A stretch of 64,000 nt of DNA, taken from Bacteroidales bacterium (GTDB taxonomy: Bacteria > Bacteroidota > Bacteroidia > Bacteroidales > Azobacteroidaceae). The DNA lies in the NCBI GenBank assembly GCA_003851245.1, contig BHEP01000006.1:1-64000 (forward strand). Direction: 5' to 3'. The position numbers and the translations under genes are program-made. How positions within the stretch are numbered: the stretch's first letter is position 1; the number at the start of each line of letters is the position of its first letter. Of this stretch, positions 27,397 through 34,204 are shown in pieces. The notes under the pieces were generated by a model that saw only the letters and a program-made list of their open reading frames with translations, made no database searches and was not told the DNA's origin.

Positions 27397-27424
27397 CAAG
27401 AAACTTTAAATAACAAGAAACTTA
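27391..27424 (+). repeat. 17-base tandem duplication across a gene junction
   Basis: Two adjacent 17-base copies (27391-27407 and 27408-27424) beginning AAATAACAAGAAACTT differ only in the last base. The first copy contains the stop codon of the TonB-like gene. The second ends at the first base of the DJ-1 ATG. Confidence 0.8.
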
Positions 27425-27960
27425 TGAAACAAGTATTCATCTTTCTAATAGATGGTTTTGAAGAAATAGAAGCCATTGCAACTATCGACATTTTGCGAAG
27501 AGCAGATATAAACATTCAGTCCGTTTCACTGACTGGCAACAATCTCGTTGTGGGAGCTCATAAGGTAGGCATTACCTGCGATCTCCTATTTGAAGAAGCT
27601 GCCTACTTGCAAGCCCAGTTGCTTATTATACCTGGAGGGACAGTTAAATTTAACGAACACGAGGCTCTTAAAAAAGAACTTCTAGCGTTTTATGCCACAG
27701 GCAAAACAATTGCAGCAATATGTGCAGCTCCTGCGGTACTGGGAGGATTGGGCCTGCTGAAAGGCAAAAATGCTACCTGCTACCCCGGATTTGAGAGCTA
27801 TCTCGAAGGAGCCAATTTTCAAGACCAAGCGGTAGTAGTAGATGGCAACATCATTACAGCAAAAGGTCCAGGCTTAACTATGGATTTTGCCCTAAAAATT
27901 GTTGAAGTCCTCGAAGGCAAAGCAAAGAGTAAGGCAGTTGCCGCAGATCTGCTATTGTAG
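27424..27960 (+). CDS. DJ-1/PfpI family protein
   Basis: The 178-residue protein matches the DJ-1/ThiJ family. It has GFEEIEA near residue 11 (acidic residue E16) and the nucleophile-elbow Cys100 in AAICAAPAVLGGLG. TAKGPGLTMDFAL near the C-terminus completes the pattern. Members act as glyoxalases, protein deglycases or oxidative-stress proteins. Which activity applies here cannot be decided. It follows the TonB-like gene with 27 bases between, made of the tandem duplication. Confidence 0.88.
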   Translation: MKQVFIFLIDGFEEIEAIATIDILRRADINIQSVSLTGNNLVVGAHKVGITCDLLFEEAAYLQAQLLIIPGGTVKFNEHEALKKELLAFYATGKTIAAICAAPAVLGGLGLLKGKNATCYPGFESYLEGANFQDQAVVVDGNIITAKGPGLTMDFALKIVEVLEGKAKSKAVAADLLL

Positions 27961-28010
27961 TTAGCTGCATGCTACAAGATAATAATCGTACATTTACGTT
28001 TCAAAAGTAC

Positions 28011-28051: not shown

Positions 28052-29254
28052 ATGAAGATAGAGAAGGTAAGAATAAAAAACTTCAAGGTCTACCTAGATA
28101 CAGAAATTAAGGACTTGCCTAATTTCTGTGTGTTTTTGGGTGCCAATGGCTCTGGTAAATCTACCTTATTCGATGTTTTCGGCTTTTTAAGCGATGCCTT
28201 AAAAAATGACGTAAAAACAGCCCTAGGCAGAAGAGGGGGTTATAAGGAGGTTTATTCAAGAAATGGCAGTGGAGACATTATGATAGAAATCAAATTTAGG
28301 AACTCTGACATTGATGGAAAAAAACAGCCACTGATTACTTACGAACTTTCCGTTGGTCTGAATGATGCCAATATGCCAATCGTGACCAAGGAGATATTAA
28401 GCTACCGAAGAGGAAGGAACGGGCGACCGTATAAATTCCTAGAATTTTCTAAGGGCAAGGGCTCCGCAATAGTAAACGAAAGTGAATTTGAGACTAAAAA
28501 GCAAGAATTTAAGGATCAAAGAGAGGAACAAACTTTGGATAATCCCCATATCTTGGCGATAAAAGGCTTGGGTCAATTCCAGAAATTTCACGCAGTTAGC
28601 TCGTTTCGGCGATTGCTGGAGAATTGGTATATATCTAATTTTCAGATTCAAGCAGCACAAAACAGTGGAGATACCGGACTAAGCAAACACCTATCAACAA
28701 CGGGCGACAATTTGGCGCAGGCCACAAAATATATCTATGAGAATCATCCTGCAGTTTTCCAAGGTATTCTGGATAAAATGAAGGAAAGGGTTCCTGGGAT
28801 AGAGAAAGTTGAAGCCCAAGAAACAATAGATGGTAGAATTATTCTCCAATTTAGTGATGGCAGTTTCAAAGACCCTTTTACCTCAAGATTTGTCTCTGAT
28901 GGAACTATGAAAATGTTTGCCTACTTGATATTGTTAAACGATCCAGAACCACACCCTCTTTTATGTATTGAAGAGCCTGAAAATTATTTGCACCACGACC
29001 TTCTAATGGAGCTTGCTGAAGAGTTTAGAGAATACTCCGATAGGGGAGGGCAAGTCTTTATATCCTCCCATTCGCCCGATTTCGTTAATGCCTTAGAACC
29101 TCAAGAGCTTTTCTGGTTGGAAAAGAAAAATGGCCACACATCCATAAAAAGAGCCTCCGACGACCCAATGATTATGGCTCTTTCAAAAGAAAATCAATTA
29201 GGATACCTATGGAAGCAAGGCTATTTTATTGGAAGCGGTCCTAATACGAAATGA
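28052..29254 (+). CDS. AAA_21-type ATPase (OLD/RecF-like), first gene of a putative defence pair
   Basis: The 400-residue protein is an SMC/ABC-fold ATPase. Its features are an N-terminal beta strand KVRIKNFKVY, Walker A GANGSGKST (residues 30-38), a signature-like SDGTMKMFAYLILL from residue 282, Walker B LLCIEEPENYLHH (303 on) and the switch His340 in ISSHSPDF. It lacks the nuclease domain of one-piece OLD proteins. The next gene, one base downstream, supplies a TOPRIM-like DUF4276 protein. ATPase plus separate TOPRIM gene is the layout of several antiphage systems such as PARIS, but assigning defence here is inference. A palindrome overlaps its promoter. Confidence 0.8.
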   Translation: MKIEKVRIKNFKVYLDTEIKDLPNFCVFLGANGSGKSTLFDVFGFLSDALKNDVKTALGRRGGYKEVYSRNGSGDIMIEIKFRNSDIDGKKQPLITYELSVGLNDANMPIVTKEILSYRRGRNGRPYKFLEFSKGKGSAIVNESEFETKKQEFKDQREEQTLDNPHILAIKGLGQFQKFHAVSSFRRLLENWYISNFQIQAAQNSGDTGLSKHLSTTGDNLAQATKYIYENHPAVFQGILDKMKERVPGIEKVEAQETIDGRIILQFSDGSFKDPFTSRFVSDGTMKMFAYLILLNDPEPHPLLCIEEPENYLHHDLLMELAEEFREYSDRGGQVFISSHSPDFVNALEPQELFWLEKKNGHTSIKRASDDPMIMALSKENQLGYLWKQGYFIGSGPNTK

Positions 29255-29255
29255 T

Positions 29256-29843
29256 ATGGCAAGAATAGAAATATTAGTAGAAGAAAAGTCGATGAAAGAG
29301 CTACTTTGTGTGCTACTACCAACAATAGTATCTCCCAATTGGCTTATTAATCAAAACTATTTTATTAGAAGTTTCGAAGGTAAAGCCGATTTACAAAAAA
29401 ATATACCCTCTAGGGTTAAAGTTCTTTGAAACTGGACAAATGAAGCTACTGGTCTTATTTTGCTGCAAGATCAGGACAGCTCTGACTGCAAGGTATTAAA
29501 ACAAAAACTAATTAATCTTTGTGATAGTAATCGAGATTGTCGGATACTTGTTAGGATTGTCTGCAGAGAATTAGAATCTTGGTATATTGGAGATTTTGAA
29601 GCAATTGGGGCAGCATATCCTCAATTCGACCCATCAAAATATAAGGATAAGGCAAGATTTAAAAACCCTGAGACTTGCCATGCTTCTGCCGTATTGAAAA
29701 AAATTCTGCCAGGGTTTCAAAAAGTTGCTTCTGCAAAAAAAATAGCTCCTTTCCTTAATCCCGAAACCAATAGATCTCAAAGTTTTAAGCAAACTATCTT
29801 AGGTATTAAAAATTTCTTTGATGCTGTAGAACCTCATTTATAG
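29256..29843 (+). pseudogene. DUF4276 (TOPRIM-like) gene interrupted by an in-frame TGA
   Basis: Reading from the ATG at 29256 gives IEILVEEKSMKELL, then an in-frame TGA at 29427-29429. The same frame then continues without a frameshift through NWTNEATGLILLQDQDSSDC to a stop at 29843. Total length would be about 195 residues, normal for DUF4276. The N-terminal EE pair and the DQD motif look like the two acidic motifs of a TOPRIM fold, and the TGA falls between them. A point mutation of CGA or TGG is the simplest explanation. A sequencing error or readthrough is possible. A TTG at 29460 could start a C-terminal fragment. Confidence 0.75.
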
Positions 29844-29907
29844 TTTTACAACAATTTTCCTTATACGCTCTTACACTACCATTGTATTGCGTTGCTATTG
29901 TATTTGG

Positions 29908-32058
29908 CTATTCGTCGCAATTGATTAACAACTCATCCAAGAGTCTTTCACTTTTCCCCCACTTTTCCATTATAAACAAGACATATCTAATATCTACTCC
30001 GATTGTTTTTTGCACCTCGGGCTCGAATACGATATCTCCGCTCATGGCTTCCCAGTTGCCATCAAAAGCGAGTCCAATTACTCTTCCTTTGCCGTCAAAC
30101 ATGGGGCTACCAGAGTTGCCACCGGTGATGTCGTTGTTGGAAATAAAACAAACATTGAGGTCTCCATCTTCATTAGCATATCTTCCAAAATCTTTTTTCT
30201 TGAAAAGTTCGAGTATCTCAGGCTGCAAATGAAATTCGGAATCATCTTTTTTGTACTTCTCAAATATTCCTTTGGTGGTGGTATAATAATCATACCAAGC
30301 ACCATCAAAAGGTTTGTAGGGGCTCACAGACCCATAGCTCATGCGCATACTAGAATTGGCATCTGAAGGGAGGTTTTTTTCTGGGTACATCTCTCGCAAT
30401 CCAGCAAAAAAGAGCCTTTCACCTTTGAGTATGTCGTAGCTAAATAGGCCGCTTGCAATGAAACTTGCATCCAGAGATTCACGTATCGATGCTGCCAAAA
30501 GGTAGGCAGGATCATTCTTGAGTTTCTTTGCTTTTTTGGGATTGAGCAATGCCTCTTCCAATTTATCTGGATATGGCACAACAGACGTGCTAAAAACATG
30601 GGCAGCATATTTTTCCATATCCCCCTTATATTTTTTCTCTATATCTTTGAATATCTGCGGCAAAAACACCGGAGAAATTCTTTTTTGTGCCACTTGCAGC
30701 ATTGCTGCTAGCACCTTTTGGTCTAGTTTGGCATCATAATTCTTGTATGCAGGAAGTATCTCTTCATTAAAAAAAGTAGCCTGCTCTTGAGCGGTATCAT
30801 CAAAATTTAGAGACATGGCAGCAAAGGCGAGCCTTGTAATCTCGGTGCCTACAGTAATCGTTTCATAGAGATATGTGAGAGCTTCCTGTATTTCTGTTGA
30901 TGCGGTGTAAGCCTCTTTTACAAGCGGAAGAGCTTCTCCATAGAGCTCTTGTTTTTCAGCCGATTGCGCATCCAGCCAGTCAGAAAAATCTTTTTCTAAG
31001 GACTCTTTGCGCTCCACTACCTGCATTTTTTCTATTCCTCGGTTCATCCCTATAGAATTTTTCCAATAATTGGAGCTGCGTGCATATTTTGAGGCATATT
31101 TTATTCGGGTAGCATCGTCCCTTAGCATAGCTTCTTTCCAGAGTTCTTGTTTGATGCCCCTCGCCTCTATGCGAGGCATATTGCTACTATTCACCCTTTG
31201 GCTTATTCCCCACGAAGAGAGGTAGCGGTTGGTTCTACCAGGAAATCCAATGGTCATGCAGAAATCATTTTCATTGTAGCCATTTAAAGATATGGGAGCC
31301 ACATTTTTGGGTTTGTAGGGGCTATTGTCGGCACTATAATTTGCAGCCCTATTGTCGGCATTGGCATAGACCCTGAAGGCGCTAAAATCGCCAGTATGCC
31401 TGGGCCACATCCAATTGTCGGTATCCCCACCAAATTTACCCACCGATGAGGGGGGAGCAAAAACCATCCTTATATCCTTGAATACCTCATAAATGTTTAT
31501 ATAATATTCATTCCTATCAAAATATGAAGAGACTTCAGCAAGGATAAATTCTTGGTCTTTATTGATAGAATCTTCTATTGCGATGCTCATGTCTGTAATG
31601 ACTTTAAGTCGCTCGTATTCATCACTAATGGAGTCTACGGCTGCCATTATTTGCGGAGTAATATTCTCTGTTTTAATCAAATATCGAATAATCATATTGG
31701 GTATGGCTATTTCGTCGGTAAAATTTGCAGCAACAAATCCATCTTTCAAGTAGTCATGCTCCAATGAACTTTGGGATTGAATGGCATCAAAACCACAGTG
31801 GTGGTTGGTAAAAATCAAACCCTTATTGGACACACTTACACCGGTGCAGCCTCCATCAAAATGAACAATAGCATCTTTGAGAGAACTTTCTTGGGAGCTG
31901 GAGAGCTCGTCGGGCGAAAGGCTAAATCCCAGTTTGCGCATGGCATCCCAATTGTCAGCTTTCAAGTTGTTGAGCATCCACATGCCTTCATCGGCACTTG
32001 CTGAGAGGGTGGAAAGTAAAAAAAAGAGGAATAGGGGTAATTTTTTTAGATGAGCCAT
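29908..32058 (-). CDS. dpp7: S46 family dipeptidyl-peptidase, DPP7-like
   Basis: This 716-residue serine peptidase has a cleavable signal peptide (hydrophobic residues 6-21, then SADEG). It shows the catalytic triad of family S46: TNHHCG near residue 85, GGDTDNWMWPRHTGDF for Asp, and Ser649 in GGNSGSP. The residue 18 positions after the catalytic Ser is Gly667 (AFDGNW). In the family, Gly here marks DPP7, which prefers hydrophobic P1 residues, and Arg marks DPP11, which prefers acidic ones. The protein would release dipeptides in the periplasm for use as nutrients. It converges on the broken DUF4276 gene. Confidence 0.92.
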   Translation of the reverse strand: MAHLKKLPLFLFFLLSTLSASADEGMWMLNNLKADNWDAMRKLGFSLSPDELSSSQESSLKDAIVHFDGGCTGVSVSNKGLIFTNHHCGFDAIQSQSSLEHDYLKDGFVAANFTDEIAIPNMIIRYLIKTENITPQIMAAVDSISDEYERLKVITDMSIAIEDSINKDQEFILAEVSSYFDRNEYYINIYEVFKDIRMVFAPPSSVGKFGGDTDNWMWPRHTGDFSAFRVYANADNRAANYSADNSPYKPKNVAPISLNGYNENDFCMTIGFPGRTNRYLSSWGISQRVNSSNMPRIEARGIKQELWKEAMLRDDATRIKYASKYARSSNYWKNSIGMNRGIEKMQVVERKESLEKDFSDWLDAQSAEKQELYGEALPLVKEAYTASTEIQEALTYLYETITVGTEITRLAFAAMSLNFDDTAQEQATFFNEEILPAYKNYDAKLDQKVLAAMLQVAQKRISPVFLPQIFKDIEKKYKGDMEKYAAHVFSTSVVPYPDKLEEALLNPKKAKKLKNDPAYLLAASIRESLDASFIASGLFSYDILKGERLFFAGLREMYPEKNLPSDANSSMRMSYGSVSPYKPFDGAWYDYYTTTKGIFEKYKKDDSEFHLQPEILELFKKKDFGRYANEDGDLNVCFISNNDITGGNSGSPMFDGKGRVIGLAFDGNWEAMSGDIVFEPEVQKTIGVDIRYVLFIMEKWGKSERLLDELLINCDE

Positions 32059-32446: not shown

Positions 32447-34204
32447 ATGATAACAAAGCAAATACCATACGGCATCAGCGACTACGAGCGAGTGATCAAG
32501 GAAAGCTACTACTATGTAGATAAGACCATGTATATAGAGAAGATAGAGCAATCGCCCAGTTTCCTCTTTCTCATTCGCCCCCGTCGTTTTGGCAAGAGCC
32601 TACTTCTTTCGATGCTGTCGGCTTACTACGACATCAATTATGCAGATCGCTTTGAGGAGCTCTTTGGCAATCAATATATTTTCAATCAGCCCACCAAAGA
32701 CAGGGGTAAATATCTTATTCTAAGTTTCAATTTCTCATTGATAGATGCAGACCCTAAATTGGTGAAAGCCTCGTTTGAAGGGCATTGCAAAGAGCGGTGT
32801 GATGATTTTGTTAGTAATTATGAGTATCTATTCCCTCCCAATTTTAAGGTAGAATATCAAAGTCGACTTAGCACAGATCTACGACTTCAATACCTTGCAA
32901 GATTGGCATCGGAACACAACTTAGCCATCTATATCCTTATTGACGAATACGATAAGTTTACCAGTACCATACTAGCCTCTCATGGCAAGAAACTATACAA
33001 CGACATGACCCATGGTGCAGGGTTTTATCGCTCCTTTTTTTCTGTACTAAAAGGCATGACGACTGGCAATGCTGCTGCCGTGCAGCGAATGTTTATAACT
33101 GGAGTTTCGCCCCTGACGATGGACGACCTCACCAGTGGATTCAATATAGGAAGCAATGTGACATTAAAACCTCAATTCAACGACATTATAGGCTTTAGCG
33201 AACAGGAATTGCGAACCATGCTCGGCTATTTCAAGGCACAGGAAAAGATACCACATACAGTAGAAGAAATTATTGATACCATACGGCCTTGGTACAACAA
33301 CTATTGTTTTGCCGAAGAGTGCATAGGCAACAATATGTACAACTCAGATATGGTATTATATTATTTGGATGCTTATTTCGACAAAGGCGAAATAGTGCTG
33401 CAAGAAATGATAGACCACAACATCAAAACCGACTACAACCAGCTCAACAGGCTGGTTAAGCTAGATGCCGCCTTGGGCAAGAACTTCTCCGTCATTCAGG
33501 AACTTGCAGAAACTGGGCAGACCATAACGGCAATAAAGAGAGCCTTCTCTGCCGAAGAGCTTGCCAATACGTCCAACTTCAAATCGCTACTTTTTTATTT
33601 TGGACTGCTCAGCATTGCCGGCACCTTTAGGGGTAAGTCGGTTTTGCGCGTCCCCAATCTGGTAGTCCGCGATCAGCTGTTTCATTATTTGATAGAAGGC
33701 TACAAAGACCGCTTCAACAAATCTATAGACATAGATGAGATCGAAGAGGCGATGGAAGACATGGCATATCAAGGAGGGTGGAAGCCAGCATTTGAGCTCT
33801 TTGGCAAGCGTCTTGGCGATGCCAGTGTTGTCAGGGAGTTTATAGAAGGCGAGGCCCACGTAAAGGGCTTTATGCTTGCACACATGAGCCAGACAAATCA
33901 CTACATCATATATCCAGAATATGAGATGGCAAAGGGCTATGCCGATTTTTATTTTCAGCCCAATATATACCTGCATCCGGATATGCTTTACAGCTATATC
34001 GTGGAAATAAAATATCTCAAAAGGGATGCCAAGGATATAGATATTGCCAATATGCGTAGTGAAGCCAGCGAGCAGCTACGCCGATATGCTGCCGACCCCA
34101 AGGTGGCGGCATCATTAGGCAGCACCCAACTGAGATTGGTAGGCGTGATAATGAAGGGATGGGAGGTGATAGATAGCTTTGAGCTGCCGCCTTTCAAAGA
34201 ATAG
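32447..34204 (+). CDS. AAA-ATPase-like protein with C-terminal PDDEXK_9 domain
   Basis: The 585-residue protein starts with the typical AAA-ATPase_like opening: PYGISDYERVI, YYVDKTMYI, then a P-loop RPRRFGKSL at residues 44-52. It ends with a PDDEXK_9 nuclease-like domain containing YPEYEMAKGYADFYF and YIVEIKYLKRD, which give the acidic and Lys residues of the fold. The family is abundant and often multicopy in gut Bacteroidota and its role is unknown. Suggestions include defence or mobile-element functions. The 3' end overlaps the convergent flippase gene by 11 bases. Confidence 0.85.
   Translation: MITKQIPYGISDYERVIKESYYYVDKTMYIEKIEQSPSFLFLIRPRRFGKSLLLSMLSAYYDINYADRFEELFGNQYIFNQPTKDRGKYLILSFNFSLIDADPKLVKASFEGHCKERCDDFVSNYEYLFPPNFKVEYQSRLSTDLRLQYLARLASEHNLAIYILIDEYDKFTSTILASHGKKLYNDMTHGAGFYRSFFSVLKGMTTGNAAAVQRMFITGVSPLTMDDLTSGFNIGSNVTLKPQFNDIIGFSEQELRTMLGYFKAQEKIPHTVEEIIDTIRPWYNNYCFAEECIGNNMYNSDMVLYYLDAYFDKGEIVLQEMIDHNIKTDYNQLNRLVKLDAALGKNFSVIQELAETGQTITAIKRAFSAEELANTSNFKSLLFYFGLLSIAGTFRGKSVLRVPNLVVRDQLFHYLIEGYKDRFNKSIDIDEIEEAMEDMAYQGGWKPAFELFGKRLGDASVVREFIEGEAHVKGFMLAHMSQTNHYIIYPEYEMAKGYADFYFQPNIYLHPDMLYSYIVEIKYLKRDAKDIDIANMRSEASEQLRRYAADPKVAASLGSTQLRLVGVIMKGWEVIDSFELPPFKE

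What the first reader, a model, noticed from the sequence alone, without database searches (positions are those of the whole stretch)
28052..29843. ATPase plus TOPRIM-like DUF4276 pair, with the effector gene split by one TGA
An AAA_21 ATPase gene is followed one base later by a DUF4276 gene whose visible acidic motifs (VEEKS and DQDSSDC) look like a TOPRIM active site. This is the general layout of two-gene antiphage systems. The second gene has a single in-frame TGA (29427) between the two motifs and no frameshift. The pair may be a defence module whose toxic effector was recently disabled, or a case of readthrough or phase-like switching.
Basis: partly seen in the sequence, partly recalled or inferred. 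Interest (0 to 1): 0.6.

Follow-up and report, generated by a model that had tools for sequence, protein, structure and literature searches.

The report
Antiphage gene pair, effector gene broken
This is a two-gene bacterial module, probably antiviral, made of an ATPase and a predicted OLD-type TOPRIM nuclease whose nuclease gene is cut by one stop codon; in cyanobacterial relatives the nuclease gene is often the only one broken, which suggests the ATPase restrains a costly nuclease.

Summary
An intact ATPase gene (28052-29254) is followed one base later by a DUF4276 frame (29256-29843) with one in-frame TGA (29427-29429) and no frameshift. The pair matches PADLOC's candidate system HEC-01 (E 1e-172 and 2e-45). 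AlphaFold2 models the read-through DUF4276 protein with high confidence. Its best structural match is the TOPRIM-plus-helical nuclease region of Class 2 OLD proteins (Z 12.7); AriB is weaker (Z 8.0). All invariant acidic residues persist on both sides of the stop, so the lesion looks recent. I call it an acquired, probably antiphage, split-OLD module whose nuclease is disabled. The pair sits behind pfpI only in this genome. Relatives lie in a P2/186-type E. coli prophage between cI and int, in type I restriction operons, in an Hma-like cluster and on Synechocystis PCC 6803 pSYSM. New here: in 386 cyanobacterial genomes searched both ways, 12 loci keep the ATPase but have a broken or missing DUF4276. 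None clearly shows the reverse (one borderline). That fits an ATPase that restrains a costly nuclease. Readthrough as a designed switch and phase variation have little support. An assembly error at 29427 cannot be excluded without reads. Antiphage activity is untested.

The parts
28052..29254 (+). ABC/SMC-type ATPase gene (AAA_21), intact, 400 aa; HEC-01 ATPase component
   Evidence: AAA_21 E 3.6e-32; PDLC04144 E 9.8e-173; 54% identical to an E. coli prophage ATPase
28139..28165 (+). Walker A, GANGSGKST (residues 30-38)
   Evidence: read from the translation
28958..28975 (+). Walker B-type strand, LLCIEE (residues 303-308)
   Evidence: read from the translation; aligned with the E. coli homologue
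29256..29843 (+). DUF4276 (OLD-like TOPRIM nuclease) reading frame, 195 codons plus stop, interrupted once
   Evidence: PF14103 E 1.8e-12; PDLC04143 E 2.1e-45
29280..29285 (+). TOPRIM glutamate motif E9-E10, invariant in 33 aligned sequences
29427..29429 (+). in-frame TGA, codon 58, in a variable column at the end of helix 43-58
29469..29477 (+). TOPRIM DxD motif D72-Q-D74
   Evidence: D72 and D74 invariant
29568..29576 (+). ELE motif E105-L-E107, proposed counterpart of T506-x-E508 (metal B) of Class 2 OLD
   Evidence: E105 and E107 invariant; OLD residues from PMC6755086; the equivalence is inferred
27424..27960 (+). upstream neighbour pfpI (DJ-1/PfpI), end of the conserved exbD-tonB-pfpI order; not part of the module

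Best explanation
This is a laterally acquired HEC-01-type (split OLD-like) module. An ABC-type ATPase senses infection and holds or gates a separately encoded TOPRIM nuclease (DUF4276) that would cut nucleic acid with a two-metal site (E9/E10, D72/D74, E105/E107). In this genome the nuclease gene carries one recent nonsense codon between the first and second motif, so no full nuclease is made except by trace readthrough, and the ATPase is left intact. Shown: the pair, the stop, the fold prediction, the conserved residues, the lineage-specific insertion and the excess of nuclease-only breakage in cyanobacterial relatives. Inferred: antiphage role, nuclease activity, sensing and restraint by the ATPase.
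For: Gene pair and stop. HEC-01 models match both genes. Fold: pLDDT 93.3, pTM 0.89; the top four solved structures are Class 2 OLD C-terminal regions, Z 11.9-12.7 over 169-173 residues, AriB Z 8.0 over 153. Fourteen invariant residues are kept; 0 of 10 and 3 of 27 conserved columns deviate before and after the stop, within the range of intact relatives. The pair follows pfpI only in this genome, not at the 19 relatives' pfpI loci read. Defence or mobile context of relatives: between cI and int in P2/186-type E. coli prophages, next to hsdM/hsdS/Uma2 and hsdR, pSYSM of Synechocystis PCC 6803 beside toxin-antitoxin genes and a phosphorothioation-associated methyltransferase, SNF2-ATPase-DUF4276-methyltransferase in Aeromonas. 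Asymmetric breakage: 12 loci with ATPase intact and DUF broken or absent, 0 the reverse, 31 both intact.
Against: No antiphage assay of this family was found in the open library searched. Window neighbours (exbB, tonB, pfpI, S46 peptidase) are housekeeping, and many relatives have ordinary neighbours too. Plain Foldseek gave no E below 0.02 and ranked unrelated folds first; the OLD match rests on the second aligner, whose background of unrelated folds reaches about Z 8-10. The draft assembly has 118 contigs and the reads are not available.
Confidence: 0.72

Rival explanations
1. The TGA is a sequencing or assembly error and the effector is intact in the living strain.
For: Draft assembly (118 contigs); a single base; all other codons and conserved residues intact; nearly all other Bacteroidota pairs read here are intact.
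Against: The assembly is rated 99.68% complete with 0 contamination. Breakage limited to this gene is common in relatives, including in chromosome-length assemblies.
Confidence: 0.15
2. The ATPase is kept because it has a use without its nuclease (partner of another effector, regulator, or immunity against a related system), and the nuclease was discarded.
For: ATPase intact while DUF broken in 12 cyanobacterial loci, two of which have lost DUF4276 completely (L055, L056). The window genome has a second, intact but distant ATPase+DUF4276 pair on C67.
Against: Retention can equally reflect recent breakage. The two pairs of the window genome share only 22% ATPase identity, so cross-talk is doubtful. 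Selection on orphan ATPases was not measured.
Confidence: 0.2
3. The stop is read through at a useful level, giving a deliberately small dose of nuclease.
For: The stop is followed by A, a context recalled (not tested) as leaky for UGA in E. coli; codon 58 lies in a variable column, so an inserted residue could be tolerated.
Against: None of the 32 aligned relatives has a stop there; the nonsense codons in relatives lie elsewhere (residues 20, 102, 167, 193); no tRNA-Sec above cut-off; TGA ends 7 of 54 window genes.
Confidence: 0.04
4. The pair is not a defence module but an ordinary DNA-repair-like ATPase with an accessory TOPRIM protein.
For: Housekeeping context in the window and many relatives; the ATPase is distantly similar to Rad50/SMC heads.
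Against: Patchy distribution (6 of 392 other genomes in the order sample), prophage cI-int location, restriction-operon and pSYSM contexts, frequent breakage.
Confidence: 0.1

Closest known systems
HEC-01 (Hma-embedded candidate 01, PADLOC)
   Same: Both genes match HEC-01 models, adjacent and in the same order; a distant Aeromonas relative is flanked by an SNF2 helicase and a methyltransferase, as in Hma.
   Different: The window copy is not embedded in Hma and its nuclease gene is broken.
Class 2 OLD nuclease (GajA type), C-terminal region
   Same: Closest solved fold, covering the TOPRIM and helical parts (Z 12.7); conserved Glu, DxD and a further E-x-E suggest the same two-metal site.
   Different: ATPase and nuclease are separate genes; no gajB helicase seen next to the pair; no sequence-level match to OLD chains in the PDB.
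PARIS (AriA/AriB)
   Same: Two genes, ABC ATPase then TOPRIM nuclease; AriA holds AriB inactive until triggered (PMC12409363); AriB is structurally similar (Z 8.0).
   Different: The nuclease is DUF4276 and has no AriB model match; the fold is nearer to OLD than to AriB.
AbiL (AbiLi/AbiLii)
   Same: ATPase with TOPRIM partner; weak AbiLi match of the ATPase (E 8e-26).
   Different: No AbiLii match of the DUF4276 protein.

Membership tests
HEC-01 (PADLOC candidate) | ATPase gene matching a HEC-01 ATPase model | tested here: met
   PDLC04144 E 9.8e-173, residues 1-397 of 400
HEC-01 (PADLOC candidate) | adjacent DUF4276 gene matching a HEC-01 partner model | tested here: met
   PDLC04143 E 2.1e-45 for the frame read through the stop
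HEC-01 (PADLOC candidate) | intact partner gene, that is, a complete system | tested here: not met
   TGA at 29427
TOPRIM / OLD-type nuclease | TOPRIM fold with the OLD helical extension | tested here: met
   model pLDDT 93.3; 6nk8_A Z 12.7 over 173 residues; prediction only, and Foldseek alone was not significant
TOPRIM / OLD-type nuclease | conserved Glu after strand 1 and DxD after strand 3 | tested here: met
   E9/E10, D72, D74 invariant in 33 sequences, placed at the ends of strands 2-8 and 64-72
TOPRIM / OLD-type nuclease | metal-dependent nuclease activity | not testable with these tools
   needs purified protein
Gabija / Class 2 OLD | ATPase and TOPRIM in one protein | tested here: not met
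   two genes
Gabija / Class 2 OLD | adjacent gajB helicase gene | tested here: not met
   neighbours are pfpI and an S46 peptidase
PARIS | AriB-type effector | tested here: not met
   no AriB model among the matches at E up to 1
AbiL | AbiLii partner | tested here: not met
   no AbiLii model among the matches at E up to 1
Antiphage defence system | protects cells from phage | not testable with these tools
   context evidence only

The most novel reading that the evidence does not exclude
In the HEC-01/DUF4276 family the ATPase is an antitoxin-like restraint on an OLD-type nuclease. The nuclease is repeatedly and independently lost while the ATPase persists, and loss of the ATPase alone is not tolerated, so orphan ATPases mark past abortive-infection systems that were switched off.
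Probability: 0.4. Interest if true: 0.55.

Novelty: new member of a known kind. Interest (0 to 1): 0.4.

Why it matters
HEC-01 is a database candidate for which I found no dedicated study in the open library. This report links its DUF4276 partner to the OLD-type TOPRIM nuclease fold, identifies intact homologous pairs in E. coli prophages and in Synechocystis PCC 6803 where it can be tested, and gives sequence evidence on which gene is the costly one. If the asymmetry holds, the ATPase of split-OLD systems acts as a restraint as well as a sensor.

Tried and rejected
Alternative code or selenocysteine: TGA ends 7 of 54 window genes; the best tRNA-Sec hits are below the cut-off, and the two checked are ordinary tRNA-Ser and tRNA-Leu. 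Cassette switching: only one copy of this DUF4276 type in the genome. Sequence-only search for solved relatives of DUF4276: nothing useful with the single protein or the profile. Foldseek in the PDB: no match with E below 0.02; top rows are Arf GTPases and designed or Rossmann folds, rejected as common arrangement. Viral contigs: no relative of the ATPase. Reinitiation at TTG 29460 giving a working protein: rejected because that product lacks strand 1 and E9/E10. E. coli as a strain-level test of decay: only 6 of 5426 genomes carry the pair, all annotated as both genes present, too few. Aeromonas plasmid pair against E. coli DNA: no match. Phage RCS47 ATPase: distant (25%), with no DUF4276 annotated next to it.

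Full report
Observation. The ATPase gene runs 28052-29254 and ends in TGA. One base later an ATG at 29256 opens a frame that ends at 29843 and holds one internal stop, TGA at 29427-29429, codon 58. Pfam names the two AAA_21 and DUF4276; the DUF4276 match spans the stop.

Identity. PADLOC-DB assigns both genes to HEC-01: PDLC04144 for the ATPase (E 9.8e-173) and PDLC04143 for the DUF4276 frame (E 2.1e-45). HEC stands for Hma-embedded candidate, put forward through guilt-by-embedding; some HECs, including HEC-06, have shown antiviral activity (PMC12988326, PMC10855318). I found no dedicated study of HEC-01 or DUF4276 in the open library.

Fold. I aligned the read-through protein with 32 intact relatives taken from loci found by the ATPase or the DUF4276 query. 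Invariant positions include E9, E10, G42, D72, D74, R100, E105, E107, D113, S174 and S176. AlphaFold2 gave pLDDT 93.3 and pTM 0.89. The order of strands and helices puts E9/E10 after strand 1 and D72-x-D74 at the end of strand 3, as in TOPRIM. VIA-align 2 placed four Class 2 OLD C-terminal structures first (6nk8_A Z 12.7, 173 residues, rmsd 3.8), then PH0156 (Z 10.2); AriB reached Z 8.0. Unrelated designed and lumazine-synthase folds lie at about 8 to 10, so the OLD match stands above background and covers nearly the whole protein. Foldseek alone did not give a significant match, so this remains a prediction. In Bp OLD the metal ligands are E400, E404, D455, D457, T506 and E508, with K562 also needed (PMC6755086); I propose E105-x-E107 as the counterpart of T506-x-E508, by inference from order and spacing.

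The stop. Residue 58 lies at the end of the helix 43-58, in a variable column. No relative in the alignment has a stop there. P0002 departs from the consensus at 0 of 10 conserved columns before the stop and 3 of 27 after it (L111I, R136K, D139E, all mild), no worse than intact relatives from diverse phyla. The lesion is therefore recent, or an error. TGA is used as a normal stop in 7 of 54 window genes, and no tRNA-Sec passes the cut-off. I saw no simple repeat at the site, and the genome has only one copy of this DUF4276 type; a diverged, intact second pair lies on contig C67.

Acquisition. The order exbD-tonB-pfpI is conserved in the family, but the ATPase follows pfpI only in the window genome; none of the 19 relatives' pfpI loci read here (about 1.5 kb each side, where the contig allows) carries it. 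Only 6 of 392 other genomes sampled in the order have the pair, all with both genes intact. The module is a lineage-specific insertion.

Context of relatives. In E. coli the pair (ATPase 54% identical to the window's, DUF4276 30%) sits between cI and the integrase gene of a P2/186-type prophage in the two genomes inspected; six of 5426 genomes carry the pair. In Leptolyngbya, Nostoc and Tychonema loci it lies in the order hsdM-hsdS-Uma2-pair-hsdR (L015, L036, L041), with partial versions in L035, L038 and L042. On Synechocystis PCC 6803 pSYSM it lies beside toxin-antitoxin genes and a phosphorothioation-associated methyltransferase gene. In an Aeromonas plasmid a diverged pair lies between an SNF2-type gene and a methyltransferase gene. 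Many other relatives have ordinary neighbours. The defence role is thus well supported by context for some members and inferred for this one.

Asymmetric breakage. In the scan that found loci by their ATPase, many DUF4276 genes were interrupted by different lesions (L016, L018, L020, L021, L026, L031, L033, L038, L039, L050, L051). Because that set was chosen by the ATPase, I searched one set of 386 cyanobacterial genomes with each gene separately, fetched 49 loci of the nearest subfamilies and scored each gene as intact if one frame without stops covered 90% of its best query. Result: 31 both intact; 12 ATPase intact with DUF broken or absent; 0 DUF intact with ATPase broken; 6 with both damaged or missing (one of these, L074, is an assembly gap). 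The 12 are L055-L058, L060, L061, L063 and L068-L072; the lesions are nonsense codons at residues 20, 102, 167 and 193, frameshifts, insertions with stops, an internal deletion, a C-terminal truncation and two complete losses. L069 (stop at 193 of 200) is a mild lesion, and L096 may have an ATPase damaged at its N-terminus, so a cautious count is about 11 to 1. The DUF gene is half as long as the ATPase gene, so with equal tolerance ATPase-only breakage should be about twice as common; 12 of 12 has a binomial probability of 1.9e-6 at 1/3 and 2.4e-4 at 1/2, and 12 of 13 gives 1.7e-5 and 0.0017. These figures treat loci as independent; the lesions differ, but no tree was built, and the coverage rule is harder on the faster-evolving gene.

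Mechanism. By analogy with PARIS, where AriA holds AriB inactive until a phage trigger arrives (PMC12409363), the simplest model is an ATPase that senses infection and restrains an OLD-type nuclease. Losing the nuclease removes a cost; losing the ATPase alone would free it. The breakage pattern fits this, but it does not prove restraint, since an independent use of the ATPase would leave the same trace. In the window genome the module is then a disarmed one: sensor kept, nuclease lost.

Verdict. A correctly observed, broken member of a known candidate defence family. The novelty lies in the OLD-like fold assignment for DUF4276 and in the asymmetric breakage, both testable in laboratory strains.

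Noticed in passing
L001:389-1480 and 1501-2166 (own genome, contig C67): A second, intact and strongly diverged ATPase+DUF4276 pair in the same genome, with an EGESE motif in place of VEEKS.
   Followed up: partly
L033:3094-3297, L060:1400-1700, L051:7185-7619: DUF4276 copies from different phyla with internal deletions that keep the reading frame; L033 and L060 lack the whole catalytic middle, all keep the first strand and the C-terminal SxSF-type helix.
   Followed up: no
L065 (G530:C56:115000-118000): One deletion joins ATPase residues 1-329 in frame to DUF4276 residues 127-180, giving a single fused frame.
   Followed up: no
PADLOC models PDLC04143 and PDLC04144: Their names appear swapped relative to the other HEC-01 models: 04143 'HEC-01A' matches DUF4276 and 04144 'HEC-01B' matches the ATPase.
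   Followed up: partly
window 27950-27966 and 29893-29909: A 17-base imperfect direct repeat (15 of 17) brackets the pair; similar-quality repeats occur inside the genes, so it may be chance.
   Followed up: no
window 32447-34204: AAA-ATPase_like plus PDDEXK_9 protein (PF09820, PF08011) close downstream, another possible mobile or defence-type gene.
   Followed up: no
L138 and L139, E. coli P2/186-type prophages, cI to int interval: The cI-int interval carries the ATPase+DUF4276 pair; a possible cargo hotspot.
   Followed up: partly
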